Source: an uncultured Verrucomicrobia subdivision 3 bacterium
GTDB lineage: Bacteria; Verrucomicrobiota; Verrucomicrobiae; Limisphaerales; UBA11358
Direction: 5' to 3'
Assembly (NCBI GenBank): GCA_903921455.1
Contig: CAIXPZ010000036.1
Location: 1-34,571 of the forward strand
Length of the DNA stretch: 34,571 bases
Shown here piece after piece: positions 1,814 to 31,133 of the stretch. The notes under the pieces are model-generated. The model had not been told where the DNA came from. It made no database searches and saw nothing but the letters and a program-made list of their open reading frames with translations. Made by a program: the position numbers and the translations under genes. Numbering within the stretch: position 1 is the stretch's first letter; every line of letters begins with the position of its first letter.

Positions 1814-3097
1814 TTAGGGCACGACCAGTACGCGATAAAAGAGGCTGGGAATGCCGGGTGAATGGGTGATGACGATGGGGGTGGCGGTGGTGGGCGGGAG
1901 AATGTTGGTGAACACGTTCCATGTGCCGCCGGACATCGTCCCGTTGGTCAGCACGGTGTTGGTCAGGCCCACGACCGGCGTGAACGTGAATTGAAAGTTG
2001 CCGCTGCTGGCAGCCGGGCCGGTGATCGGCGGCGGCGGCGGGTTGGTGACCACCAGCGTGGCGAAGATGCTGTTCGTGATGCCGGCGGTATTGGTGATGG
2101 TTACCGAGTAAGTGCCCGCCTGACTGGCGCGTAGATTGGTCAATGCCAACGAGGAATTAGTGGCATCCAGTAGGGCGCTGTTGGTATTGAAGTTCCACTG
2201 GTAAGCCAGCGCCGGCACACCTCCGGCCACGACGCTAAACGAGGCGCTGCCGCCGGCTATAGTTGTCAGGCTGACGGGCTGGTTGGTGATGACAGGTGGT
2301 TGCCAGACGGTGAGCAGCGCATAGGTGCTATTGGTGAACCCGGCGGAATTCGTGATTGCCACCGAGTAGGTTCCGGCGTTGGTGAGTTGGATGTTCGTGA
2401 GCGTAACTGAAGCGTTGGTTTGGTTTAACAACGCCGTATTGGTGTTGTAATACCATTGATATTTGAACGGCGCGGTGCCGCCATTGGTTATGCTGAACGT
2501 GGCGTTGTTGCCGACGGTATTTGTCAGGCTAGTGGGCTGGTTGGTGATGGTGGGGACGGAACCACCACTAGCAGCCAAAATGGCGAAGGTAAAATCACCA
2601 GCAATGGGATTTGCTCCTGAATATGTGAGATCAATGTGAAAAGCATTAGTGCCAACTTTGGTTGGAGTCCCGGAAATTACACAGTAAACATTTGTAAGAC
2701 TCGAACTTCCAGTGTTTCGATCTACAAATTTGAAAGTCAATCCCGGGGGCATACCATTCGTCGTAGTCTGGTTACTAAGAACAACGGCGGCTACCACGCT
2801 GTTAGTTAAGAGGGTGCAAAGTGCTCCCCCATCTCCCGAGGTTTTGACGGTTAATGTCAGGTTGTTGGTTAAAGGCGAATTGACTGTTCCAACCAAGTTT
2901 GTCGGTGCGGCGAAAAAGTTCGTCGCTGCCGAATGTGCATCATAGGCACCTATCACCGCCGCCGAGCCAATGCCCCAACGTAGGATGATGGCAAAGCTAG
3001 AACTAGCCGTCGGGCTGGTGACGATGTTGCGGAGGAGCGGTAGGAGTTGCAGTGCCGCCGCAAGTAACAAGGGTAATGTCCGGGTGAGACGTTTCAT
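1814..3097 (-). CDS. Secreted Ig-like domain protein, paralogue of the downstream gene
   Basis: A 427-residue Asn/Thr-rich protein. The N-terminal ~60 residues align without gaps with the downstream protein: signal-like segment, shared FAIILRWGIG, then DAHSAAT at residues 53-59 where the neighbour has DAVSGAT. A He_PIG-like part follows (PPGLTF and ISGTPTKVGT, about 117-160). Two Ig-like domains occupy about 185-270 and 271-355. The tail ends in SLFYRVLVVP, a C-terminal style common in verrucomicrobial secreted proteins. Cysteines are few. The gene starts 53 bases after the DUF4266 stop on the same strand and no terminator is visible in that gap, so it may belong to the apbE/DUF3570 transcript. 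The function is unknown. The first third of the gene is more AT-rich than its neighbours. Confidence 0.85.
   Translation of the reverse strand: MKRLTRTLPLLLAAALQLLPLLRNIVTSPTASSSFAIILRWGIGSAAVIGAYDAHSAATNFFAAPTNLVGTVNSPLTNNLTLTVKTSGDGGALCTLLTNSVVAAVVLSNQTTTNGMPPGLTFKFVDRNTGSSSLTNVYCVISGTPTKVGTNAFHIDLTYSGANPIAGDFTFAILAASGGSVPTITNQPTSLTNTVGNNATFSITNGGTAPFKYQWYYNTNTALLNQTNASVTLTNIQLTNAGTYSVAITNSAGFTNSTYALLTVWQPPVITNQPVSLTTIAGGSASFSVVAGGVPALAYQWNFNTNSALLDATNSSLALTNLRASQAGTYSVTITNTAGITNSIFATLVVTNPPPPPITGPAASSGNFQFTFTPVVGLTNTVLTNGTMSGGTWNVFTNILPPTTATPIVITHSPGIPSLFYRVLVVP
2921..2941 (-). other. Candidate FMN attachment motif DAHSAAT in the paralogous Ig-like protein
   Basis: Codons 53-59 read D-A-H-S-A-A-T, at exactly the position of DAVSGAT in the neighbouring paralogue. 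Ala replaces Gly in the fifth position, a substitution I believe the pattern tolerates. Inference only. Confidence 0.35.
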
Positions 3098-3150: not shown

Positions 3151-3369
3151 TTAATTACAACCGCATCCGCCGCCGCCGACGCCGCGTCCGCCGCTGGCAT
3201 CTTCGCGCGAGAACCAGATGTGTTCGGCTTGGGCCACCCCGAGCGGATCGCGGTCGCCGCGCATGGTATAATCGGCCAGATGTTCGCGCTGCCAGGGTTT
3301 GACGTTTGCGCAGCCGGTAACAGTGATAAGCAAGGCGGATGCCAACAGTAAAATCGCTTTGATTTTCAT
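3151..3369 (-). CDS. DUF4266-family small lipoprotein
   Basis: A 72-residue lipoprotein. Residues 1-19 form a signal peptide ending in the lipobox VTGC, so Cys20 would be lipidated. The mature part has the family's VKPWQRE-LA segment (about 23-32) and ends in a Gly-rich tail with terminal GGGCGCN, leaving two cysteines two residues apart at the extreme C-terminus. This is the DUF4266 pattern as I remember it, and members are commonly found beside DUF3570, ApbE and TlpA-like genes, as here. The ATG at 3369 lies five bases after the thioredoxin stop. Longer upstream starts in this frame were rejected because they would overlap the thioredoxin gene in a shadow frame. The function is unknown; the Cys tail could bind metal or be a thiol substrate of the adjacent thioredoxin (inference). 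Confidence 0.85.
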   Translation of the reverse strand: MKIKAILLLASALLITVTGCANVKPWQREHLADYTMRGDRDPLGVAQAEHIWFSREDASGGRGVGGGGCGCN

Positions 3370-3374
3370 AGGTT

Positions 3375-3869
3375 TTATTTCAAAAGGGAGTCGATTTCGC
3401 TGAGATATTCCTTGCGGGTGTCTTCGCCGTGGAAACCCTTGTGCATAAAACGCACCTTGCCTTCGCCATCCAGAATGAACGAGGTGGGCATGGTCTGTGG
3501 CTCCACCGCCGCCACGAGTTTCTGTTCCCCGTCGCGGACCACCGTGAGCAAGACGGGATGTTTCTGGAGGAATTTGTCCATGTTCGCCTGCTTCTCGTCC
3601 ACATTCACCGCCAGCACGACCAGGCGGTCGCCATATTTTTTCTGGAGTTCGTCCAGCACCGGGAATGACTTGGCGCAGGGCAGGCACCAGGAGGCCCAGA
3701 AATCCACGATCACGATTTTGCCCTTCAGCGAATCGGGCAATTTGCCTTCAAGGTTGAAGGTGGTGAGGTCGGGCAGCGTGTCGCCAACTTTCAGCGCGGC
3801 GCTGGCGGTGTAAACAATTCCAGCGAGCAGCGTCGCCAGTGTCAGTTTTTTAAGCAGGGATGTATTCAT
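3375..3869 (-). CDS. TlpA/ResA-like periplasmic thioredoxin
   Basis: A 164-residue thiol-disulfide oxidoreductase. Residues 1-24 are a signal peptide (ATLLAGIVYTASA). The thioredoxin fold follows, with the active site WCLPC (Cys62 and Cys65), the cis-Pro segment MPTS (Pro128) and the typical FILDGEGKVRFMHKG strand. The start at 3869 was chosen because it gives the signal peptide; it sits inside the 3' end of the full apbE frame (stop at 3850-3852), an overlap suggesting translational coupling. It probably keeps exported cysteines reduced, and the DUF4266 lipoprotein with its CGC tail, encoded five bases downstream, is the obvious candidate partner (inference). Confidence 0.92.
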   Translation of the reverse strand: MNTSLLKKLTLATLLAGIVYTASAALKVGDTLPDLTTFNLEGKLPDSLKGKIVIVDFWASWCLPCAKSFPVLDELQKKYGDRLVVLAVNVDEKQANMDKFLQKHPVLLTVVRDGEQKLVAAVEPQTMPTSFILDGEGKVRFMHKGFHGEDTRKEYLSEIDSLLK

Positions 3870-3987
3870 GGAATTTTCGGGAATAGAGTTTGGTGGTTTC
3901 GGTGGTGACGGCTCCGGCGGCGCCGGGATGGAGTTCGACCAGTTGCAAGCCCTCTTTCGCGCCGAGGATGCACACGCTGGTCGAAAG
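3850..3987 (-). pseudogene. Detached in-frame C-terminus of apbE beyond the amber codon
   Basis: Forty-five sense codons follow the TAG at 3988-3990 in the same frame and end at TAA 3850-3852. They begin LSTSVCILGAKEGL, matching the conserved end of ApbE proteins (LSTxxFxLGxEKG type). No start codon suits independent expression. It would be translated only by amber readthrough, or the TAG is a mutation or sequencing error. Confidence 0.75.
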
Positions 3988-4848
3988 CTAACCAGCAATG
4001 GTGCAGCTCGGCGCGATGATGGACACGGCGCGGCAATCATTCAGGGCGGGATAGCCGGTGCGCGGGTCGAGGATGTGGCCGTAGCGACGGCCGTTAAATT
4101 CAAAGTTGCGCAGGTAATCGCCGGAGGTGGCGACCGCGTGGTCGGTCACGGCCACGCCCGCCCAGCATTTGCCGGGGTTCGTCGCATCGTCGAGGCCGAT
4201 CCACCAGAATTTCTTTTCCAGCGCATGGCCGCGCACGCGCACGTCCTGGCCGAAATCCACCATCACGTTCGGGATACCGCGCTGGATGGCCATGTTCATG
4301 ACGCAGTCCACGGCGTATTCCTTGCCGATGCCGCCCAGGTCGAGCGCCATGCCGGCGCGGGGCAGAAAAATACCGCCGGCCCGGCGCTGGATCTTGTTCC
4401 AGCCGACGAGTTCGCGGGCGGCTTGGATGGCGGAATCGTCCGGCACGACCGGCGGACGCTGTTTCCAGTTCCACAGTTTGATGAGCGGCAAAGCCGTCGG
4501 GTCAAACGAGCCGCGGGTGAAGAAAAATAATTCCTGGCACAGGTTGAACAGGCGGTCGGTTTCGGGATCGGTTTCCACCCAATGTTCGCCGGCGGCGGCG
4601 TTGATCCGGCCGATGAGGCTGTCCGGCAGAAAGCGCGAGTAGCGCGCCTCGAACTGCGCGGTCCAGGTGACGACATCGCGTTGGAAATCGCGGGCGATGT
4701 CGCCGGGGACGCCGTGAAAATTCACGCGGCAGAGCGTGCTCATGGCGCGGAACTCCAGCTTGTGCAAGCCGCGCTCCACCGACGTCTGCGCGGATTGCGA
4801 GACGCGGGCAAGCACTTCCTGCGCTGAATTGGGGCTGGTTATCACCAT
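3988..4848 (-). CDS. apbE: FAD:protein FMN transferase (ApbE family), truncated by in-frame amber
   Basis: ApbE attaches FMN from FAD to Thr/Ser of target proteins. Family motifs are present: ALDLGGIGKEYAVD (168-181), VDFGQDVRVRG (197-207), ATSGDYLRNFEFNG (240-253) and HILDPRTGYP (258-267). The frame stops at TAG (3988-3990, codon 287) immediately after APSCTIAG. The next 45 codons, down to TAA at 3850-3852, continue the family C-terminus (LSTSVCILGAKEGLQ...). The undisrupted protein would be about 332 residues, normal for ApbE. The truncated form lacks the LST threonine region that in characterised ApbE proteins contributes to metal binding, so it is probably inactive unless the amber is read through. 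There is no signal peptide, which is odd if the targets are exported. The ATG overlaps the DUF3570 stop by seven bases. Confidence 0.9.
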   Translation of the reverse strand: MVITSPNSAQEVLARVSQSAQTSVERGLHKLEFRAMSTLCRVNFHGVPGDIARDFQRDVVTWTAQFEARYSRFLPDSLIGRINAAAGEHWVETDPETDRLFNLCQELFFFTRGSFDPTALPLIKLWNWKQRPPVVPDDSAIQAARELVGWNKIQRRAGGIFLPRAGMALDLGGIGKEYAVDCVMNMAIQRGIPNVMVDFGQDVRVRGHALEKKFWWIGLDDATNPGKCWAGVAVTDHAVATSGDYLRNFEFNGRRYGHILDPRTGYPALNDCRAVSIIAPSCTIAG

Positions 4849-6017
4849 AAAATCGAAAGGCCGATGGTATAGACGTTGGCTTTGGGATACATGCCGGAGT
4901 CGGTTTTGCCGTCCATGCCGTGCATTTCGTAGCGGTGATAGCCGGCGACTACATGCACATGATCATTGATCACGGCGGTGGCCTGGAGTCCCATATCTGT
5001 CGAGTATAATTCCGAAAGGCGGTAATCGGATGAGTGGAATCCACCAGGGTTTGTTGTGTATGGCCCGTTAAACGTGACTTGATAAAAATCCGCCGCCGAT
5101 TGTTCGTAAACCCGGACAAAGGGTTCGGCGATGAAATGTTTGCCCAGCCATTGATGCCAGGTCAGGCCTACGGTGTTGGCCGTTACGCCGTAGGTGTCAT
5201 GGTAGAAGCGGTAGGAACCTTCCAGGCTCGCGTTGAGCTTGTCGAAGTATTGGGTCAGCGAAGTGTAGACGATTTCCTTGTTGCGGTGGGCCGGGCGACG
5301 CTCCGGCACGCCGATGTAGAAACCCGCCGGGAAAATGTCAGGGTGATATTGTGCGCTCCGGTAGGGATCGCTTAAATAGCCGGAATCATTTCCAAATGTG
5401 AACGCCGTATTTAAAATGGTCTTTGGTGTGAGTAATTGGGTGATGCCGACAATGCCTTCCGTGGAGGATTTATCGCTCCAGATTGTTTCATTGGGAAAGT
5501 TGCGGACCGTGTCGAAATTATGCGAGACGCCTAATTGCAGGGTGGTGTTCTTTTCGTTGAACTCGATCGCATCATTCAGCGAAATGCCGTAGGACTGGTA
5601 ATCGTGTTCCTTGCTATAGGCGAAACCCGGTGTGATGGTCTGGTTGCCCAGCCGGCAATCCGTTTGCAGGCTGATGGAGCGGCGAATATCCCAAACTTGT
5701 GTGGTTAAGATTTTTCCATTCAAGTTATGCGTTCCCGTCGGGGTGGCTCCGGAGATGCCGTCGTAAACGAGTTCGCCCTTGGCGATGATGGCGTCCACGA
5801 GTTTCTGCTCGAAGTAAACCGAATGCGTGTCAATCGTCATCCGGTTGTTGTCTTCCTTGTAATATTCGTAGCGGTAGTCCACCTGATCCTCGGCGCGGAG
5901 CAATTGCGGGAGGCTCACGGTCAGTCCCAGCGGCAGGCTCCGGCGCCAGTGGCGCAGCATGTGCCAGACTTGGTTCACCGCGCGGGCGGGCCGGAAAGAA
6001 TTCGTATTTCTAATCAT
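4842..6017 (-). CDS. DUF3570-family outer-membrane barrel protein
   Basis: A 391-residue protein from ATG 6017 (a TTG at 6023 is possible). After a short basic N-terminus and weak signal-like segment (LPLGLTVSLPQLLRAED, about 28-44) come alternating amphipathic strands such as VDYRYEYYKED, SLEGSYRFYHDTYG and HFIAEPFVRVYEQ. The final residue is aromatic (IGLSILW), as in outer-membrane beta-barrels. This matches DUF3570 as I remember it. Residues 86-92 read DGISGAT, a perfect ApbE-type flavinylation motif with Thr92 as predicted acceptor. It is the first gene of the minus-strand run and overlaps apbE by seven bases. The function is unknown; a flavin-bearing outer-membrane redox protein is an inference. 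Confidence 0.85.
   Translation of the reverse strand: MIRNTNSFRPARAVNQVWHMLRHWRRSLPLGLTVSLPQLLRAEDQVDYRYEYYKEDNNRMTIDTHSVYFEQKLVDAIIAKGELVYDGISGATPTGTHNLNGKILTTQVWDIRRSISLQTDCRLGNQTITPGFAYSKEHDYQSYGISLNDAIEFNEKNTTLQLGVSHNFDTVRNFPNETIWSDKSSTEGIVGITQLLTPKTILNTAFTFGNDSGYLSDPYRSAQYHPDIFPAGFYIGVPERRPAHRNKEIVYTSLTQYFDKLNASLEGSYRFYHDTYGVTANTVGLTWHQWLGKHFIAEPFVRVYEQSAADFYQVTFNGPYTTNPGGFHSSDYRLSELYSTDMGLQATAVINDHVHVVAGYHRYEMHGMDGKTDSGMYPKANVYTIGLSILW
5742..5762 (-). other. Candidate FMN attachment motif DGISGAT in DUF3570
   Basis: Codons 86-92 are D-G-I-S-G-A-T, the D-x-x-[ST]-G-A-T motif known from NqrB/NqrC/RnfG-type ApbE targets. It is encoded in the gene directly upstream of, and overlapping, apbE. 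The following residues are PTG. Thr92 would be the acceptor. Confidence 0.55.
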
Positions 6018-6282
6018 ATTCAAGGTTGGATTCCCAAAATGTTGCCTGAATCTAGCAGCGCCACCATAAAAAGCCGGTGTATGAAGGATTAAAAAAAATT
6101 TAAGTTTATGAAGTGCCGGGGAACTTAGCGGTGCCTGAACTTGCGGGAATGATAACCCTCCTCCTCTGGCCGGCGACCGGTGTGATTTGGGGAAATGTCC
6201 TTGACGAAAACCCGGTTGCTGGCGTTAATCCCAAGGCAGCTTGACTGGCTTGACGTTGAATTTTTTAATGAAACCACAATTT

Positions 6283-6963
6283 ATGAAACACTCCGCAATA
6301 AATTATTTATCCATCACCTTGGCGGCCTTGGGCTTGACTGTTTTCACCGCGTCGGCAGAAGCCCCGTTGGATGGCCTCAACCTCGTCACCGTCGCCTTGA
6401 CCCTGCAATCCCAGGGCGGATTCAGCGGCGACGGCACCGTCAGCACCTACGCCAAGCCCACGGTCAGCAAAATGGACACCAAAGATATCCTCAACCAGCT
6501 CGCCCGCGACAAATATGCCCAGTCCGTTTACTCCGCCACGTCGTTTCCCAACGGCTCCAAGCTGGCGCTGGCGGGCGGGTTTTTTGTGGTCGTGGATAAG
6601 AACGACCAGCTCATCGTGGATGTCTCGGACATCATGCGGTTTTCCGCCGGGGACAACGATATTTTGAGCGGTAAGATTAATGACACCACAAGGCTCGCCA
6701 GCCCCAGCCTCACCGAATTGATCGTGGTGAAACTCACGTTCGATGACACTTTTATTTTTGGCGGCGGCAACTTAAAGTTTTTTGCGCAGGGCCTGGACAC
6801 CGTCCAGACCAAGGATTCAAAGCCGAACGCCTCCGGAAATTATTCGGAAAATTCTTCCGACTCCGTCAAAAATTCCGCCGGTGAAGGCAGCTCCAAAGGC
6901 TCACCCTTTGTGCTGACCGGTTCCATCCAGGGCAAACGGAATGTGAAGCTGACCCTTAAGTAA
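6283..6963 (+). CDS. Secreted protein of unknown family
   Basis: 226 residues from ATG 6283; an ATG at 6268 and a TTG at 6241 are in-frame alternatives. The 6283 start gives a compact signal peptide, MKHSAINYLSITLAALGLTV with a likely cut after FTASA. No cysteine and no further membrane segment is seen in the mature part. The middle holds strand-rich hydrophobic stretches (LALAGGFFVVVDKNDQLIVDVSDIM, residues about 95-119; TELIVVKLTFDDTFIFGG). A Ser/Asn-rich linker (about 180-208) precedes a C-terminal GSIQGKRNVKLTLK. I do not recognise the family. It is divergent from the DUF3570 gene and convergent with the two-component genes. No good Shine-Dalgarno site lies before any candidate start. Confidence 0.75.
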   Translation: MKHSAINYLSITLAALGLTVFTASAEAPLDGLNLVTVALTLQSQGGFSGDGTVSTYAKPTVSKMDTKDILNQLARDKYAQSVYSATSFPNGSKLALAGGFFVVVDKNDQLIVDVSDIMRFSAGDNDILSGKINDTTRLASPSLTELIVVKLTFDDTFIFGGGNLKFFAQGLDTVQTKDSKPNASGNYSENSSDSVKNSAGEGSSKGSPFVLTGSIQGKRNVKLTLK

Positions 6964-6997: not shown

Positions 6998-8050
6998 TCA
7001 GATGTGAAACGACTCCGGTTGCTCCACGCACGGCACCAGTAGGCGGGCGACGTGGTAATTGCCGCCGTGCCGTCGGTGCAGGCGCATTTCCGGTTCCAGC
7101 CGCAATAGCGCCGCCACCACGCGCAAGCCCAGCCCCAGCGTCGGTTCGGTCGTGTCCATGTGGCTCGTCCGGTTGCTCACAATCAGCGCCGCGAATTTCC
7201 CGCTGCGCTTGACCCGCACCGTCAGATCGCCCGCCCCGTGCTTGAGCGCATTCGTGAGCAGGGCGTGGGCGATTTGCCGGACATGGCGCGGATCGGCGGA
7301 AACCCAGCATTCCGGCACGGATTTCAAGGTGAACTGCCGGTCCCGCTCGGCTGCAAGCAGCTGAAAATCCTCCACCACTTCCGCCACCGTCGTGGAAAGA
7401 TTGAACACCGAGCGCATCGCCATCAACCGCCCCTGCTCGGCCCTTGCGATCAGCAGCGACTGGTCCACCACATGCGTTAGCCGGTGCAACTCGCTTTCCA
7501 GCTCATCCGCGAGTTCCGGGGCGATGCGTTCGCCCGCCTGCTCGACCTTGAGCCGGATGATCGCCAGCGGCGTGCGCAGCTCGTGGGCGACTTTGGCGGC
7601 GTAATTGTTCATCTCGTTGAAGGATTCATCCAGCCGCACCAGCAATTCGTTCAACTGCCGCACCAGGTCGCGGAATTCATCATCCAGCTCCGGCAACGAA
7701 ATCGGTTCGGCCAGGTTGCCGGGATTTTTCGCCTGCAACTGGCGGTTCACGCTTGCGATGGGGCGGAGCGACTGCCGCGCCAGCCAGTAGCCGCCCGCCA
7801 CGGCCACGGCCACGACCGGAATGAGCCATAGAAGCGCCGACTTGAGCAGGGCGTCGGCAATCTGGTGCACCTCCGCCTCCGTCAGGCTGTCGTGCAGCCG
7901 CCAGTCGGGCAGTTCGGGATAGGTTTTGTTGCAGGCTTTTTCGAGCAGTTGCGATTCCAGCGTCAGGTGCAGCAGAAACAGGAACGCCGCCGTCACGACC
8001 GCGAAGCCGAGGCCATACCAGAGCGTGAGCCGCGACCGCAGCGATTTCAC
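6998..8050 (-). CDS. Sensor histidine kinase of an OmpR-type two-component system
   Basis: 350 residues. TM1 is at about 12-29 and TM2 at about 72-90, enclosing a short periplasmic sensor of about 40 residues. A HAMP-like linker is at about 92-145. The H-box is YAAKVAHELRTPL with phosphoacceptor His156. The N-box is ALLTNALKHG (Asn267). The usual DxGxG G1 box is not visible: the position reads IVSNRTSHMDTT. The GLGLRVV G2 box is present (about 306-312) and the domain ends in HGGNYHVARLLVP. Its ATG overlaps the response-regulator stop by four bases (ATGA), so the two are coupled. The signal is unknown. Confidence 0.92.
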   Translation of the reverse strand: MKSLRSRLTLWYGLGFAVVTAAFLFLLHLTLESQLLEKACNKTYPELPDWRLHDSLTEAEVHQIADALLKSALLWLIPVVAVAVAGGYWLARQSLRPIASVNRQLQAKNPGNLAEPISLPELDDEFRDLVRQLNELLVRLDESFNEMNNYAAKVAHELRTPLAIIRLKVEQAGERIAPELADELESELHRLTHVVDQSLLIARAEQGRLMAMRSVFNLSTTVAEVVEDFQLLAAERDRQFTLKSVPECWVSADPRHVRQIAHALLTNALKHGAGDLTVRVKRSGKFAALIVSNRTSHMDTTEPTLGLGLRVVAALLRLEPEMRLHRRHGGNYHVARLLVPCVEQPESFHI

Positions 8051-8724
8051 GGTTCGCCCTCCCGCAAGGTGAAGCCCACGCCGCGCACCGTGTGGATCAG
8101 CGGCACCAGCCCCGGCTTATCAATCTTGCGGCGCAGCATGTTGATATAAACGTTTACCACGTTCGTCTCGGAGTCAAAATGCTGGTCCCACACGTGCTCG
8201 ACAATCGCCGTTTTGCTCACCGGCTTGGGCGAGGCGTTGATGAGCAATTCCAGCAGCGCATATTCGCGCCGCGTCAGCTCGATCTGCTCGCCCGCGCGCC
8301 GCGCCTCGTGCGAAACCAGATCCAGTTCCAGATCCGCCACGCGGATGAGGTTGTTCGCCTGCGGCCGCTGCCGCCGGAGCACCGCGCGCAGCCGCGCCAG
8401 CAGTTCAACGATGGAAAACGGCTTGGTCAGATAATCATCCGCGCCCGCGTCCAATCCGCGCACCTTGTCCTCGATGTCATCGCGCGCCGTGAGGAAAATC
8501 ACCGGCGCGATCACGCCCTTGCGCCGCAGCAGGCGGACCACCGTGATGCCGTCCTTGTGTGGCATGTTGATGTCCAGCAGCAGTGCGTCGTAGGGGCTGG
8601 ATTCGGCGAGCCAGAGCGCCTCGTCGCCGTCGTGGGCCACGTCCACGGCGTAGCCCTCGGCCACGAGACCGGCCCGGATGTGTTCCGCCACTTTGCGTTC
8701 GTCTTCAGCCAGCAGGATGCGCAT
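8047..8724 (-). CDS. OmpR/PhoB-family response regulator
   Basis: 225 residues. The receiver domain (1-~118) has the acidic pair Glu7/Asp8, phosphoacceptor Asp51 (LLLDINMP), Thr79 (FLTARDD) and Lys101 (LTKPF). The C-terminal winged-helix DNA-binding domain (about 128-222) contains LTRREYALLELL and the recognition-helix region TNVVNVYINMLRRKID, ending with the HTVRGVGF wing. It is the first gene of the pair, and its stop overlaps the kinase start. It presumably activates or represses genes after phosphorylation by the downstream kinase; the targets are not evident here. Confidence 0.95.
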   Translation of the reverse strand: MRILLAEDERKVAEHIRAGLVAEGYAVDVAHDGDEALWLAESSPYDALLLDINMPHKDGITVVRLLRRKGVIAPVIFLTARDDIEDKVRGLDAGADDYLTKPFSIVELLARLRAVLRRQRPQANNLIRVADLELDLVSHEARRAGEQIELTRREYALLELLINASPKPVSKTAIVEHVWDQHFDSETNVVNVYINMLRRKIDKPGLVPLIHTVRGVGFTLREGEP

Positions 8725-26097: not shown

Positions 26098-26221
26098 TGG
26101 CGGAAACTAATCGGCGCGGTTCGCCATTACAAGCCTGTCCTTGCAGCCGCAGGGAGTTTGTCGCGCGGTTGCCAATTTTTGAAAAGCCGCTGTCAATCCG
26201 CCCCGGGTTATGCTATTCATC

Positions 26222-27286
26222 ATGGCCAATTTGATGAACTTGAACGCCGAAAAAATCGCCACTTCCCGGGAACGCTTTAACCGCGCCGCCCGCTGTCTGC
26301 CGGTGGACCGTCCGCCGGTGTGGCTGATGCGCCAGGCTGGACGCGCTTTGCCCGAATACCGCAAGCTCAAGGAGACCTACACGTTCGTCCAGCTTTGCCA
26401 GAATCCCGAACTCGCGGTCGAGGTGACGCTCCAGCCGGTGCGCCGGTTCGGTTTCGACGCCGCGATTTTGTTCAGCGACATCCTCGTGATTCCCGAGGCG
26501 ATGGGGCAAACCTATCATTTCAAGGAAACCGGTGGCGTGCAGATGGATTTTGCCGTGACCAGCAAGGCCGACATCGAAAAACTTTCCGTGGAGCGTGTGG
26601 TGGAGCGGTTGAGCTACGTTGATAAGGCCCTGCGAATGCTGCGTAAAGAACTGGGCGACCAGACCGCGCTGCTTGGGTTCACCGGTTCGCCCTGGACCCT
26701 GGCGACCTTTATGATGGAAGGCGCGAGCGTGCCGAAATATAGCCGCGCGTTGCAACTGTTCCGCGAGGACAAAAAAACCTTTTTCGGCCTGCTGGAAATA
26801 CTTACTGCCGCCGTCACCGCCTATCTCAAGATGCAGATTGCCACGGGTATTGACGCGCTGCAGATTTTTGACAGCCACGGCGGACATCTCGCGCCGACGG
26901 AATTTCAGGAGGCCAGCGGCCGTTGGACGAATGAAATCATCGCCCATCTCGGCGGCAAGGTGCCGGTAATAAATTTCTCGCTCGGCACGCATGGCAATTG
27001 GCCGGATTTGATCAACAGCGGTGCGAATATTCTCGGCATTGACTGGCAAACCGATTTGGCGGAAGCGCGTAAGATCATTCCGGCGCAACTTGCCCTGCAG
27101 GGGAATCTTTCGCCGGCGCATATCGCCGAATCCACGCCGGAAGTCGTCGCGGCGGAGACGAAGAAAGTCCTTGAAACCATGCGCGGCCGGCCCGGACACA
27201 TTTTCAACCTCGGCCACGGATTGACGCCGGGGGCAAAACTGGAAAACATCGCCGCCCTGGTGGAGACTGTGAAGGCTTTCAAATGA
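26222..27286 (+). CDS. hemE: Uroporphyrinogen decarboxylase
   Basis: 354 residues from ATG 26222 (ATGs at 26210 and 26234 are in frame). It decarboxylates uroporphyrinogen III to coproporphyrinogen III. Signatures are RPPVWLMRQAGRALPEYR near the N-terminus, FDAAILFSDILVIPEAMG, GFTGSPWTLATFM, IFDSHGGHLAP and FNLGHGLTPGAKLEN near the end. It is the first gene of a four-gene heme operon; its stop overlaps the hemN start as ATGA. The normal catalytic Asp is in FSDILV. The promoter probably lies in 26098-26209 but no convincing boxes were seen. Confidence 0.97.
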   Translation: MANLMNLNAEKIATSRERFNRAARCLPVDRPPVWLMRQAGRALPEYRKLKETYTFVQLCQNPELAVEVTLQPVRRFGFDAAILFSDILVIPEAMGQTYHFKETGGVQMDFAVTSKADIEKLSVERVVERLSYVDKALRMLRKELGDQTALLGFTGSPWTLATFMMEGASVPKYSRALQLFREDKKTFFGLLEILTAAVTAYLKMQIATGIDALQIFDSHGGHLAPTEFQEASGRWTNEIIAHLGGKVPVINFSLGTHGNWPDLINSGANILGIDWQTDLAEARKIIPAQLALQGNLSPAHIAESTPEVVAAETKKVLETMRGRPGHIFNLGHGLTPGAKLENIAALVETVKAFK

Positions 27287-28659
27287 AAACGCTGACCGTA
27301 GATCTGGATTTGGTGCGCAAATACAACGTGGCCGGCCCGCGTTACACCAGCTATCCGCCCGCCACCAAGTTTACCGATGCCGTCACGTGGGAGCAGCTTT
27401 CCGCGAAGATCGAGGACAATAATCGCACGGCGCGCGATCTCTCGATTTATTTTCATATTCCATTCTGCGAAACGCTCTGCTGGTTTTGCGGGTGCACCAC
27501 GGTCATCACGCTCAATCACTCGCAAGGCATGGCCTACGTCGAGGCGCTGGGCCGTGAGGTGGCGCGGTTGGCGCCGATGCTCAACCGGGACCGCAAAGCC
27601 GTTCAACTGCATTTCGGCGGCGGCTCGCCGACGTTTCTGCGCCCCGATGAAATCCGGCGCCTGGGCGAAATCATCCACCAGCACTTCACCTTTTCGTCCG
27701 ATATCGAGGCCAGCGTCGAGGTGGACCCGCGCCGCCTGACGCGCGAGCACATGGTTGCCTTGCGCGAAATTGGCTTCAATCGCGCCTCAATGGGCGTGCA
27801 GGATTTTAACCCGGTCGTGCAGCAAGCCATTCACCGCATCCAGCCGCGCGAAATGACGCAGCAGGCGATGGATTGGATGCGCGAACTCGGCTACAAATCC
27901 ATCAACCTCGATCTCATCTACGGTTTGCCGCATCAGACGCCCGCGACGTTCAACGAAACGCTCGACGCCGTTTTGGAAATGAAGCCGGACCGTCTGGCCG
28001 TGTTCAGTTACGCGCATGTGCCCTGGATCAAGCCCGCGCAGAAAATTCTCGAGGACAAAATCCTGCCGACGCCCGAAAGCAAACTGGAGGTTCTCAAGCT
28101 TGTCATCGAACGGCTTACCGCGGACGACCAATACGTCTATATTGGCATGGACCATTTCGCGAAGCCGAACGACGAACTGACCATCGCGCAGCGTAATAAG
28201 CACCTTCAGCGCAATTTCCAGGGCTACAGCACACGCGCCGGCTCGGACATTTACGCATTCGGCATGAGCGCCGTGTCACAAACGCCTGATGTCTATTGGC
28301 AGAATGAAAAGGAACTGCCGAAATGGCAGACCGCCGTGGACGCCGGCAACGTGCCGCTGCACAAGGCTTACATCGTGAGCGACGAGGACAAGATCCGCCG
28401 CGAAACCATCATGCGCACGATGTGCGACCTCTCGCTCGACTTCGCCGCCATGAGCGCGAAGCTCGGCATCAACTTCGAGCAGCATTTCGCGAAGGAACTC
28501 ACCGCCCTCGCGCCGTTTGCCGCCGACGGCCTCGTGAAGCTCAAACCCGGCGGACTCGAAGTGACCGATGCTGGTCGCCTTTTCATCCGCAACATTGCGA
28601 TGTGTTTTGATAACACGCTCGGCGTGGCGAATGAGCGGAGACATTCGAAGACGATTTGA
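27283..28659 (+). CDS. hemN: Oxygen-independent coproporphyrinogen III dehydrogenase (radical SAM)
   Basis: 458 residues. It converts coproporphyrinogen III to protoporphyrinogen IX using two SAM molecules and a [4Fe-4S] cluster. The N-terminal trip-wire region KYNVAGPRYTSYPPA marks true HemN rather than the HemW look-alike. The cluster motif is HIPFCETLCWFCGC (Cys62, Cys66, Cys69, plus Cys71). GGGSPTFL and the C-terminal HemN domain (IMRTMCDLSLDF, GRLFIRNIAMCFD) are intact. It overlaps hemE by four bases and is followed at once by the protoporphyrinogen oxidase gene, so it is translated from one polycistronic mRNA. Confidence 0.97.
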   Translation: MKTLTVDLDLVRKYNVAGPRYTSYPPATKFTDAVTWEQLSAKIEDNNRTARDLSIYFHIPFCETLCWFCGCTTVITLNHSQGMAYVEALGREVARLAPMLNRDRKAVQLHFGGGSPTFLRPDEIRRLGEIIHQHFTFSSDIEASVEVDPRRLTREHMVALREIGFNRASMGVQDFNPVVQQAIHRIQPREMTQQAMDWMRELGYKSINLDLIYGLPHQTPATFNETLDAVLEMKPDRLAVFSYAHVPWIKPAQKILEDKILPTPESKLEVLKLVIERLTADDQYVYIGMDHFAKPNDELTIAQRNKHLQRNFQGYSTRAGSDIYAFGMSAVSQTPDVYWQNEKELPKWQTAVDAGNVPLHKAYIVSDEDKIRRETIMRTMCDLSLDFAAMSAKLGINFEQHFAKELTALAPFAADGLVKLKPGGLEVTDAGRLFIRNIAMCFDNTLGVANERRHSKTI

Positions 28660-28667
28660 TCGGGCGA

Positions 28668-30035
28668 ATGAAATCCGTCGCAATCATTGGCGCTGGCATC
28701 ACGGGATTGACTGCGGCGTTTTATCTGAAACGCCAAGGCGTGCCCGTCACGGTTTATGAGGCCAGCGGGCGCGTCGGCGGCGTGATTCAATCTGTCCGCA
28801 AGGACGGCTTTCTGGCCGAGTTCGGGCCGAACACGATTCTCGAAACGTCGCCGAAAATCGCGCAGCTCGTCCGCGATGCCGGGCTAGAAGCGCGCAAGCT
28901 TGCCACCGACCCCAAAGCCGAGGCGCGCTACGTCGTGCGCTATGGTCGTCCGATTGAGATGCCCGGCAATCCGCTCGGGTTTTTCACCACGCCGCTGTTC
29001 ACCGCCAAAGCCAAGCTGGCCGTGTTGCGCGAGCCGTTCATCAAACCGCGCCGTGACGGCATCGAGGAGAGTATCGGCCAGTTTGTCGTGCGCCGGTTCA
29101 ATCAGGAATTTCTGGATAACGCGATTGATGCGCTGGTGGCGGGCATCTACGCCGGCGATCCGAACCAGCTTTCGCTGCCGCACGCGTTTCCCAAGCTTAA
29201 GGCGCTCGAAGACAATTACGGTTCGATGATCAAGGGCCAGATTTTCGGCGCGCGCGACCGGAAGAAGTCCGGCGAGGTGGCGAAAGATCGCGCGGCTAAA
29301 TTTTCCTTCGACGAAGGTTTGCAGGTGTTGCCGGACACGCTGGCGGCGCAGCTCGGTGATTCGCTGAAGTTAAATACGCCGGTGATGAAGTTAACCCAAA
29401 CCGCCAATGGCTGGCGCGTGACCACAACGCCAGGCGAAACGGAATTTGGCGCGGTGATTTACTGCGGCACGGCTTACAAGCTGGCGGAGTTGCAATTAGA
29501 TGTTCGGGCTGCGCTGCCGCGCAGCCCTACCGTGACATTTTCCGAAATCAGTTATCCGCCGGTGGGGGCGGTGGTGCTGGGTTTTCGGCGCGAGGATGTG
29601 GTGCATCCGGCATGCGGTTTCGGGATGTTGATTCCTAAGATCGAAGGCTTCAAAATATTGGGCACAATTTTTTCTTCGGCGCTGTTTCCCAATCGCGCCC
29701 CGGCGGGCCACATCACGCTCACCAGTTACATTGGTGGTGCGCGGTATCCCGAGCTCGGTTTGTTGCCGTCGGAAAAACTCGTGGATGCGACAATGGCGGA
29801 TTTACGTGTGCTTCTCGGTGTCAAAGCTCAGCCAGTGTTCCTGCATGCCAAGACGTGGCCGCAGGCGATTCCTCAATACAACGTTGGCTACGGCAAATAT
29901 CGCGACTTGCTAAACGAGATTGAACGCATGTCGCCGAATCTTTTTTTCGCCGGTCATTATCGCGATGGTGTTTCGTTGGGAGACTCAATTGTTTCGGGAG
30001 TGAACATCGCCGAGCGCGTCGGAAAAACTTTTTAG
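28668..30035 (+). CDS. hemG: Protoporphyrinogen oxidase, HemY type (FAD)
   Basis: 455 residues from ATG 28668; a TTG at 28656 overlapping the hemN stop is the alternative. It oxidises protoporphyrinogen IX to protoporphyrin IX with FAD and, in known HemY enzymes, O2. The N-terminal Rossmann motif is IIGAGITGLTAAFYLKRQG with VYEASGRVGG. The C-terminal FAD motif is LFFAGHYRDGVSLGDSIVSG, and PPO-type TxFSE/YPPVGAVVLGF segments are present. The gene name is used in the FAD-oxidase sense (also hemY). It is nine bases past the hemN stop and 87 bases before hemH, with a hairpin between. Confidence 0.93.
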   Translation: MKSVAIIGAGITGLTAAFYLKRQGVPVTVYEASGRVGGVIQSVRKDGFLAEFGPNTILETSPKIAQLVRDAGLEARKLATDPKAEARYVVRYGRPIEMPGNPLGFFTTPLFTAKAKLAVLREPFIKPRRDGIEESIGQFVVRRFNQEFLDNAIDALVAGIYAGDPNQLSLPHAFPKLKALEDNYGSMIKGQIFGARDRKKSGEVAKDRAAKFSFDEGLQVLPDTLAAQLGDSLKLNTPVMKLTQTANGWRVTTTPGETEFGAVIYCGTAYKLAELQLDVRAALPRSPTVTFSEISYPPVGAVVLGFRREDVVHPACGFGMLIPKIEGFKILGTIFSSALFPNRAPAGHITLTSYIGGARYPELGLLPSEKLVDATMADLRVLLGVKAQPVFLHAKTWPQAIPQYNVGYGKYRDLLNEIERMSPNLFFAGHYRDGVSLGDSIVSGVNIAERVGKTF

Positions 30036-30044
30036 CCACCGATG

Positions 30045-30113
30045 GGCACAGCTGAAACACAGATTTTCGGAAAAGAGTTTTTGAATCCGTGTGCATCTGT
30101 GTTTATCTGTGCC
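30045..30113. repeat. Imperfect inverted repeat between hemG and hemH
   Basis: Arms GGCACAGCTGAAACACAGAT (30045-30064) and the complement-like 30095-30113 pair with one bulge and a couple of mismatches around a 30-base loop. On the plus strand the hairpin is followed by TGATTTTTTATG, the T-run running into the hemH start. It could be an intergenic repeat, an attenuator-like terminator, or both. Confidence 0.65.
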
Positions 30114-30122
30114 TGATTTTTT

Positions 30123-31133
30123 ATGAGCAAAGCAATTTTACTGGTCAATTTGGGTTCGCCGGACTCGCCGTCCGTGCCTGATGTGCGGCGTTATCTGAAC
30201 GAATTTCTGATGGACGGGCGCGTGATCGACGTGGCGTGGCCACTGCGCCGTTTGTTGGTCGGTTTGATTCTGATCAAGCGCCCGGCGGAATCCGCTCACG
30301 CTTACGAAAAAGTCTGGACCAAGGAAGGGTCGCCGCTCGTCGTCACGAGTCTGCATGTGCAGGCGCTATTGCAAAAACGCGTCAGCGTGCCGGTGGAACT
30401 GGCGATGCGTTATCAGAATCCGTCCATCGAATCCGCCGTGAAAAAACTGGCGGCCAAGGGTGTGACCGAAGTGCTGCTCATCCCGCTCTTCCCGCACTAC
30501 GCGATGTCGAGCTACGAAACTGCCGTCGTGCGCGTGCAGGCAGTCGTCGCCCGGCTCGCGCCGTCGATGAAGGTGGTGGTGCAGCCGCCGTATTATGACC
30601 AGCCGGATTACATCGCGGCGCTGGTGGCGAGCGCGGCGGATTATTTCAAGAAGGATTACGATCATCTGCTGTTCAGCTTTCACGGCATCCCGGAGCGGCA
30701 CATCAAGAAGTCCGACCTGACCGGTTGCCATTGTCTGGCCACGCCGAATTGCTGCGAGACGCCGAGCCCGGCGCACGCCCAATGTTATCGTGCCCAATGT
30801 TACCGGACGGCGACCTTGTTCATTGAGAAAGCCGGCGTGCCGGCGGGAAAATGGTCGGTGTCCTTCCAATCGCGGCTCGGCAAAGATCCGTGGCTGAAAC
30901 CTTACACGGATTACGAACTGCCGCGCCTCGCGACGGAGGGAAAAAAGAAGATGCTCGTGATTTGCCCGGCGTTCGTCTCGGATTGTCTGGAGACGATCGA
31001 GGAAATCGGCATCCGTGGCTGCGAAGAATTCATGGCCGGCAATGGTCAGGAATTCACGCGTATTCCTTGCATGAATGAGCATCCCGCCTGGATTGCAGCC
31101 TTGGAGAATATGGCCGCAAAATTCCTCGCTTGA
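30123..31133 (+). CDS. hemH: Ferrochelatase
   Basis: 336 residues. It inserts Fe2+ into protoporphyrin IX, the last step to protoheme. The N-terminus is AILLVNLGSPDSP. The substrate region has LLFSFHGIPERHI with the catalytic His of SFHG, SVSFQSRLGKDPWLKPYTD, and the C-terminal catalytic Glu region FVSDCLETIEEI. A Cys-rich insertion (GCHCLATPNCCETPSPAH, then QCYRAQC) occurs after the SFHGIP motif, as in several bacterial ferrochelatases that may hold an Fe-S cluster or metal. It is the last gene of the hem run, but the 87-base gap with a hairpin and T-run may reduce its transcription. It is convergent with the FHA gene. Confidence 0.97.
   Translation: MSKAILLVNLGSPDSPSVPDVRRYLNEFLMDGRVIDVAWPLRRLLVGLILIKRPAESAHAYEKVWTKEGSPLVVTSLHVQALLQKRVSVPVELAMRYQNPSIESAVKKLAAKGVTEVLLIPLFPHYAMSSYETAVVRVQAVVARLAPSMKVVVQPPYYDQPDYIAALVASAADYFKKDYDHLLFSFHGIPERHIKKSDLTGCHCLATPNCCETPSPAHAQCYRAQCYRTATLFIEKAGVPAGKWSVSFQSRLGKDPWLKPYTDYELPRLATEGKKKMLVICPAFVSDCLETIEEIGIRGCEEFMAGNGQEFTRIPCMNEHPAWIAALENMAAKFLA

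What the first reader, a model, noticed from the sequence alone, without database searches (positions are those of the whole stretch)
4842..6017. DUF3570 barrel next to apbE carries a perfect flavinylation motif
Residues 86-92 are DGISGAT (bases 5742-5762), the D-x-x-[ST]-G-A-T motif to which ApbE couples FMN in Na+-NQR and Rnf subunits. The gene overlaps apbE by seven bases. I infer that DUF3570, a barrel of unknown function, is a covalent FMN protein of the outer membrane, possibly for extracellular electron transfer. I recall related SGAT/SGAS motifs in other DUF3570 proteins but cannot confirm it. The missing signal peptide on ApbE is an open problem.
Basis: partly seen in the sequence, partly recalled or inferred. 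Interest (0 to 1): 0.75.

Follow-up and report, generated by a model that had tools for sequence, protein, structure and literature searches.

The report
Flavin-carrying outer-membrane barrel with unusual ApbE
The finding is right that this outer-membrane barrel carries a flavin-attachment site, but that was shown for its family in 2021; what looks new is that its partner enzyme belongs to a group with no export signal and an altered metal site.

Summary
In detail: DGISGAT is at residues 86-92 of a DUF3570 protein (bases 5742-5762, minus strand), whose gene overlaps apbE by 7 bases. The main inference fits but is published: Meheust et al. 2021 showed that ApbE flavinylates DUF3570 and described the ApbE/DUF3570/thioredoxin/DUF4266 cluster seen here.

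Added here:
(1) AlphaFold gives a 16-strand barrel; strand alternation puts Thr92 inside the lumen, in the extracellular half, within a conserved polar pocket.
(2) The missing ApbE signal peptide is a clade trait: 100 of 103 rows of this type lack a hydrophobic N-terminus. FMN is probably attached before export.
(3) The metal-binding Asp, reported as one of three conserved catalytic ApbE residues, is Gly in this type, and a Glu is fixed in the neighbouring metal loop. Of 149 distinct ApbEs, 95 have Glu+Gly, 54 Gly+Asp, none is mixed; the tree needs one change.
(4) DUF3570 motif type follows ApbE type: mostly SGA[ST]P with Glu/Gly enzymes, mostly [ST]SAS with Asp enzymes.
(5) The window's apbE stops in frame 46 codons short of relatives, so flavinylation in this organism is uncertain.

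The substrate is already known; the enzyme is a new variant.

The parts
4842..6017 (-). DUF3570 protein, predicted 16-strand outer-membrane beta-barrel
5742..5762 (-). flavinylation motif DGISGAT, residues 86-92, acceptor Thr92
   Evidence: Thr92 inward and in the extracellular half by strand alternation
3988..4848 (-). apbE (FAD:protein FMN transferase), Glu/Gly type, no signal peptide, interrupted by an in-frame stop
   Evidence: PF02424 E 1e-61; 286 aa against 332 in the closest relatives; motifs
3988..3990 (-). in-frame stop that ends apbE early
   Evidence: 119 of 121 listed ApbE proteins (window included) read on through this motif
3850..3987 (-). rest of the apbE frame after the stop, not decayed
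   Evidence: 41-aa piece matches ApbE and is 100% identical to L001-L003
3375..3869 (-). exported thioredoxin-like protein (TlpA-like, CLPC motif)
   Evidence: Pfam Thioredoxin_8 E 3.1e-17
3151..3369 (-). DUF4266 small lipoprotein with C-terminal CGCN
   Evidence: PF14086 E 9.7e-20; DUF4266-like gene present for 143 of 151 DUF3570 rows
6998..8724 (-). sensor kinase (6998-8050) and response regulator (8047-8724) upstream of DUF3570
   Evidence: Pfam; kept in 6 of 6 nearest loci L001-L006
1814..3097 (-). Ig-domain protein downstream of DUF4266
   Evidence: Pfam Ig_3 E 1.2e-17; kept in 6 of 6 nearest loci

Best explanation
This is a DUF3570 flavin-barrel system of an uncultured verrucomicrobium. 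DUF3570 is a 16-strand outer-membrane barrel that takes one covalent FMN on Thr92 (family shown in print, this protein inferred). Its ApbE belongs to a separate subfamily that has no signal peptide and whose metal-binding carboxylate seems to have moved from the canonical Asp to a Glu in the adjacent metal loop (inferred). It most likely works in the cytosol and loads FMN onto the unfolded precursor before Sec export. In the finished barrel the FMN would sit in a conserved polar pocket in the extracellular half of the lumen and pass electrons between periplasmic thiols (thioredoxin-like protein, DUF4266) and an outside partner (inferred, not shown). The window's apbE has an in-frame stop, so here the system may be failing, recently damaged or misread.
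For: Published flavinylation of C. luteolum DUF3570 by its cognate ApbE, in cells, with mostly insoluble substrate (PMC8238504 passages). Motif and cluster match. Barrel model and lumen pocket: inward residues 8-15 positions above the periplasmic end have mean entropy 1.58-1.59 bits, all other bins 2.36-3.01. No hydrophobic N-terminus in 100 of 103 Glu/Gly ApbE rows, against 2 of 18 Asp-type rows away from DUF3570. Sec-type hydrophobic signal in 135 of 151 DUF3570. Glu with Gly, or Gly with Asp, in 149 of 149 distinct ApbEs. SecYEG lumen up to 2.4 nm (PMC6028853 passage).
Against: The window apbE is cut short. 17 of 36 Asp-type ApbEs beside DUF3570 also lack a hydrophobic N-terminus and 19 have one, so the place of loading is not uniform in the wider family. 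The Glu/Asp switch happened once, so compensation is not shown by repetition. Two ApbEs of a third kind exist, EG with AN. Three Glu/Gly ApbEs lie in stretches without DUF3570 (L118, L281, L282). The facing of Thr92 rests on alternation; no coordinates were available. I did not read the C. luteolum ApbE itself, so its type is inferred from its family. The window's own DUF3570 signal region is only weakly hydrophobic.
Confidence: 0.55

Rival explanations
1. DUF3570 is flavinylated in the periplasm before barrel assembly; the ApbE without a signal peptide is exported by an unrecognised route or together with its substrate.
For: 19 of 36 Asp-type ApbEs beside DUF3570 have a hydrophobic N-terminus and are probably periplasmic.
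Against: The Glu/Gly type lacks a hydrophobic N-terminus in 100 of 103 rows, even with the longest possible start; Chlorobi enzymes begin 7-11 residues before the first fold motif; in the AlphaFold model of P0123 residues 7-19 are a confident helix.
Confidence: 0.2
2. The window's apbE is a true pseudogene and this organism's DUF3570 is no longer flavinylated; the barrel persists for a while with its motif intact.
For: In-frame stop 46 codons before the end of 332-aa relatives, removing the C-terminal part with the conserved Thr that follows the metal motif.
Against: The letters after the stop are not decayed, 41 of 41 identical to L001-L003, which also fits a sequence error or a very recent change. 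The rest of the genome is not held, so a second apbE cannot be excluded.
Confidence: 0.18
3. The Glu/Gly ApbE is not an active FMN transferase and the DUF3570 motif is kept for the structure of the barrel.
For: The Asp reported as conserved and catalytic is missing in the whole subfamily; the motif persists in 27 of 32 DUF3570 genes with no apbE in the fetched stretch.
Against: Published flavinylation of a Chlorobium DUF3570 by its cognate ApbE. Ala91 faces outward by alternation yet is nearly invariant, 0.34 bits, as expected of a residue read by an enzyme. The motif changes together with ApbE type. The residues aligned with the catalytic Ser and His, Ser242 and His258, are invariant in 49 of 49.
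Confidence: 0.07

Closest known systems
ApbE/DUF3570/thioredoxin/DUF4266 clusters, 'DsbD systems', Meheust et al. 2021 (PMC8238504)
   Same: Same four gene families; flavinylated DUF3570 barrel; the paper counts 316 such clusters without DsbD, as here
   Different: One flavin site here where C. luteolum has two; extra sensor kinase/response regulator and Ig-domain genes; the paper passages I read do not mention the missing signal peptide or the missing Asp of this ApbE type
Characterised ApbE enzymes (T. pallidum Ftp, V. cholerae ApbE, L. monocytogenes FmnB)
   Same: Pfam ApbE; model TM-score 0.86, rmsd 2.1 to Ftp 4ig1; catalytic Ser and His kept
   Different: No signal peptide; metal-binding Asp is Gly; Glu after the loop Lys
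Cytosolic ApbE of Klebsiella pneumoniae (fumarate reductase); kinetoplastid ApbE domains (PMC12052999 passages)
   Same: ApbE without a signal peptide
   Different: There the substrate stays in the cell; here it is an outer-membrane barrel
Porin-cytochrome conduits such as MtrAB (recalled, no call)
   Same: A redox group inside an outer-membrane barrel, if the model here is right
   Different: Covalent FMN on the barrel wall instead of a haem protein plugged into it; electron transfer not shown

Membership tests
DUF3570 (PF12094) | profile match over the curated cut-off | tested here: met
   207.3 bits against cut-off 25
ApbE flavinylation substrates | D-x-x-[ST]-G-A-[ST] motif | tested here: met
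   DGISGAT, residues 86-92
ApbE flavinylation substrates | covalent FMN on the Thr or Ser | not testable with these tools
   shown in print for C. luteolum DUF3570, not for this protein
Outer-membrane beta-barrels | closed barrel with an even number of strands and an export signal | tested here: met
   16 strands; barrel matches; hydrophobic signal in 135 of 151 relatives, weak in the window protein itself
ApbE (PF02424) | profile match and fold | tested here: met
   209.3 bits; intact relative P0123 modelled, TM 0.86 to Ftp
ApbE (PF02424) | conserved catalytic Ser and His | tested here: met
   Ser242 and His258 invariant in 49 of 49
ApbE (PF02424) | conserved metal-binding Asp | tested here: not met
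   Gly in the window and in 119 of 119 listed relatives that can be read there
Extracytosolic ApbE | signal peptide or lipobox | tested here: not met
   frame starts at the DUF3570 stop; no hydrophobic stretch in the 32 residues before the fold
DsbD/DUF3570 systems of Meheust et al. [quoted passage not shown]
DsbD/DUF3570 systems of Meheust et al. | DsbD gene in the cluster | tested here: not met
   no DsbD match among the 27 window proteins scanned; the paper counts 316 clusters without it

The most novel reading that the evidence does not exclude
A cytosolic ApbE subfamily with a relocated metal ligand loads FMN onto an unfolded outer-membrane precursor, which then carries its covalent cofactor through Sec and barrel assembly, so that the flavin ends up near the extracellular mouth in a pocket that no periplasmic enzyme could reach.
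Probability: 0.4. Interest if true: 0.72.

Novelty: new variant of a known kind. Interest (0 to 1): 0.47.

Why it matters
DUF3570 flavinylation is known, but how an outer-membrane barrel gets its FMN is not. If this ApbE works in the cytosol, the cofactor is fitted before export, and surveys that drop genes without a signal peptide (as the 2021 survey did in its first count of extracytosolic components) miss part of this chemistry. A subfamily without the Asp held to be catalytic makes the metal mechanism of ApbE directly testable. The predicted lumen pocket names residues to mutate in the search for the redox partner.

Tried and rejected
DUF3570 as a new ApbE substrate: rejected, published in 2021. 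In the library, DUF3570, DUF4266 and PF12094 occur in that one paper only. Searches on ApbE with signal peptide, metal, subfamily or Asp terms listed no paper that I could recognise as describing this ApbE type (I saw listings, and passages of PMC8238504, PMC12052999, PMC4767422, PMC8906456 and PMC6028853; no paper was read whole and no supplements were available).

Asp-to-Gly as damage in this window: rejected, it is a clade feature. Tat export of a loaded barrel, suggested by WRRSLPLGL in the window protein: rejected as a general route, 7 of 151 look twin-Arg-like. Repeated compensatory evolution of the Glu/Asp switch: rejected, one change on the tree. The motif as a marker of a neighbouring apbE: rejected.

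Exceptions kept: Glu/Gly ApbEs in stretches without DUF3570: L118 beside PepSY_TM, in a genome with DUF3570 elsewhere (L036, L037); L282 beside DsbD, in G204, where the genome search found no DUF3570; L281, in G486, where it found none. Two ApbEs read EG with AN (L265, L270). No coordinates were available, so the Glu-to-metal distance could not be measured. Among the 50 rows shown by each structure search I saw no flavoprotein barrel, which excludes nothing.

Full report
What is there. On the minus strand lie, in order, a response regulator (8047-8724), a sensor kinase (6998-8050), DUF3570 (4842-6017), apbE (3988-4848), a thioredoxin-like protein (3375-3869), a DUF4266 protein ending in CGCN (3151-3369) and an Ig-domain protein (1814-3097). 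The six nearest loci, L001-L006, named Verrucomicrobia subdivision 3 or Verrucomicrobiia, keep all seven in 6 of 6; the plus-strand gene at 6241-6963 has no match in any of the six. DGISGAT is at residues 86-92, bases 5742-5762, and the 7-base overlap is real. Shuffling gives the motif in 38 of 20,000 trials.

What is known already. Meheust et al. 2021 (PMC8238504; outline and passages) expressed C. luteolum DUF3570 with its cognate ApbE in E. coli, found it flavinylated, and had to change the Ser of both [ST]GA[ST] motifs to abolish this. They describe clusters of ApbE, DUF3570, a thioredoxin-like protein and DUF4266 with DsbD, and 316 without it. The central inference of the finding is therefore right for the family and published.

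The motif across the family. Of 121 aligned proteins (the window and the 120 listed of 2,087 hits), 107 read D-x-[IV]-[ST]-G-A-[ST], 13 have Ser in place of Ala, and one reads DGISGSN. In 151 DUF3570 proteins from fetched loci (window included), the column was tested with the loose pattern [DNE]..[STA][GS][AS][ST]. It fits 78 of 82 beside a Glu/Gly ApbE, 17 of 17 beside an Asp ApbE without a hydrophobic N-terminus, 5 of 19 beside an Asp ApbE with one, 27 of 32 with no ApbE in the stretch, and the one beside a masked ApbE (L017). Of the 14 misses in the third group, 11 read SAY[ST]SAS and 3 read D.[VI]SAAS. Beside Glu/Gly enzymes the usual form is SGA[ST]P; beside Asp enzymes 31 of 36 read [ST]SAS and all 36 keep [SA]AS. 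Motif type and enzyme type go together, but both follow kinship, so this is not proof of co-adaptation. Chlorobi copies mostly carry a second site upstream; the window and most Verrucomicrobia have one.

Where Thr92 sits. AlphaFold on 101 sequences (44 of the 121 listed proteins and 57 of 58 locus ORFs in hand) gives a 16-strand barrel, mean pLDDT 87.5, pTM 0.81, with residues 1-42 below 50. The long loops 214-243 and 307-336 follow odd strands and are taken as extracellular, so strand 3 (77-97) runs outward. Hydrophobic alternation puts its even residues inward: Lys80, Glu82, Asp86, Thr92. Over 151 sequences, inward residues 8-15 positions above the periplasmic end have mean entropy 1.58-1.59 bits; all other bins lie at 2.36-3.01. 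Asp86, Thr92, Asp110, Arg112, Glu137, Asp274 and Gln306 lie in that band; Arg270 and Arg302 lie one position below it. Ala91 faces outward yet is nearly invariant (0.34 bits). All this rests on alternation; no coordinates were available. Structure searches match general outer-membrane barrels (FadL, PelB, BamA, OmpG and others).

The ApbE. The window protein ends at ...CTIAG, 286 aa. The closest relatives (92% identity) have 332 aa. Of 121 listed ApbE proteins (window included), 119 continue as AG-[LI]-[LF]-[SA]T; the window and P0208 do not. The 41 residues that follow the stop are identical in L001-L003, so the stop is recent or a sequence error.

The Gly of CTIAG aligns with an Asp of the T. 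pallidum enzyme. Passages of PMC12052999 and PMC8906456 give this Asp, with a Ser and a His, as the conserved catalytic residues; it binds Mg2+, and Ala mutants of these metal-site residues lost much or all activity in FmnB. In E. coli Ftp the equivalent Asp283 binds metal site 1 and Glu169, which I place by recall at the loop Lys position, binds a second Mg2+ (PMC4767422 passage). The loop reads G-A-I-A-K-G in T. pallidum and G-G-I-G-K-E here. Among 121 listed relatives 119 have Glu there, one has Asp, and one could not be read by the pattern. Of 158 ApbE rows, 103 have Glu with Gly, 54 Gly with Asp and one (L017) is masked. Without the window, L017 and duplicates, 149 remain: 95 Glu/Gly, 36 Gly/Asp beside DUF3570, 18 Gly/Asp elsewhere, none mixed. 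A further 51 ApbEs from two phylum samples, partly overlapping the first set, gave 4 Glu/Gly, 45 Gly/Asp and 2 of a third kind, EG with AN. In a quick tree of 86 of the 149 (42 of 95, 26 of 36, 18 of 18) with both columns masked, the Glu/Gly type lies on one side of a branch, SH-aLRT 95, one change. The switch therefore happened once; that Glu compensates for Asp is inference, helped by the relative with Asp in its place.

No signal peptide. By a simple hydrophobicity test on the longest open frame, 100 of 103 Glu/Gly rows have no hydrophobic N-terminus; L113, L139 and L144 are flagged, in my view because the longest frame starts upstream of the true start. Asp-type rows away from DUF3570 have one in 16 of 18, and in 39 of 42 of the second sample. 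Asp-type ApbEs beside DUF3570 (Bacteroidota sample, and L116 and L117) are split, 19 with and 17 without. The model of the intact relative P0123 (pLDDT 93.7) has a confident helix at 7-19, and matches Ftp 4ig1 with TM 0.86. In the Chlorobi family, 30 ApbE loci were fetched from 61 genomes searched: 23 Glu/Gly and 7 Asp. Of the 23, 20 lie in genomes with DUF3570, 2 have it in the fetched stretch (L138, L149), and one, G204, has none found; the 7 Asp genomes have none. Fisher's test on the 28 genomes in both searches gives p 7e-6, ignoring kinship.

How it probably works. DUF3570 has a hydrophobic, Sec-like signal in 135 of 151 rows; the window's is weak, 1.2. A cytosolic ApbE can only act before export. 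The published C. luteolum DUF3570, made without its signal peptide and mostly insoluble, was still flavinylated, so a folded barrel is not needed (my inference). SecYEG can open to about 2.4 nm (PMC6028853 passage). After assembly Thr92 would be out of reach of a periplasmic enzyme, which gives a reason to load early. The thioredoxin-like protein and DUF4266 would exchange electrons with the FMN from below; the outside partner is unknown. Electron transfer by DUF3570 is a proposal, in the 2021 paper and here.

Distribution. DUF3570 was found in 14 of 145, 85 of 296 and 29 of 398 genomes drawn from the phyla of G006, G013 and G017, which by the titles of their loci I take as Verrucomicrobiota, Bacteroidota with Chlorobi, and Pseudomonadota.

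Verdict. Observation confirmed; interpretation mostly right and already in print. The enzyme side (no signal peptide, Asp lost, Glu gained, one clade) is not described in the papers I searched and is the part worth following.

Noticed in passing
6241-6963 (+): A 240-aa exported protein without a Pfam match, on the opposite strand between the sensor kinase and DUF3570; no match in any of the six nearest loci, so it looks like an insertion in this lineage.
   Followed up: partly
26210-31133 (+): Haem biosynthesis run: URO-D, HemN-type radical SAM, flavin amine oxidoreductase (HemG/HemY-like) and ferrochelatase.
   Followed up: no
1814-3097 (-): Ig-domain protein kept directly after DUF4266 in 6 of 6 nearest loci: a possible further member of the system in Verrucomicrobia.
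   Followed up: partly
L109, L110, L111, L113: DUF3570 motif reads D-x-I-A-G-A-T-P, Ala in place of the first Ser/Thr, beside Glu/Gly ApbEs.
   Followed up: partly
L118, L281, L282: Glu/Gly ApbEs without DUF3570 in the stretch; L118 beside PepSY_TM, L282 beside DsbD. Their substrates are unknown.
   Followed up: partly
L265, L270: Two ApbEs of a third kind, EG in the loop and Asn in place of the metal Asp, with hydrophobic N-termini.
   Followed up: no
L112 (G141:C1:1015153-1016333): DUF3570 open frame broken into pieces, with an in-frame TAG, beside an intact Glu/Gly apbE.
   Followed up: no
L007: Two DUF3570 genes with one Glu/Gly apbE in one locus; Chlorobi stretches such as L023 hold up to four.
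   Followed up: no
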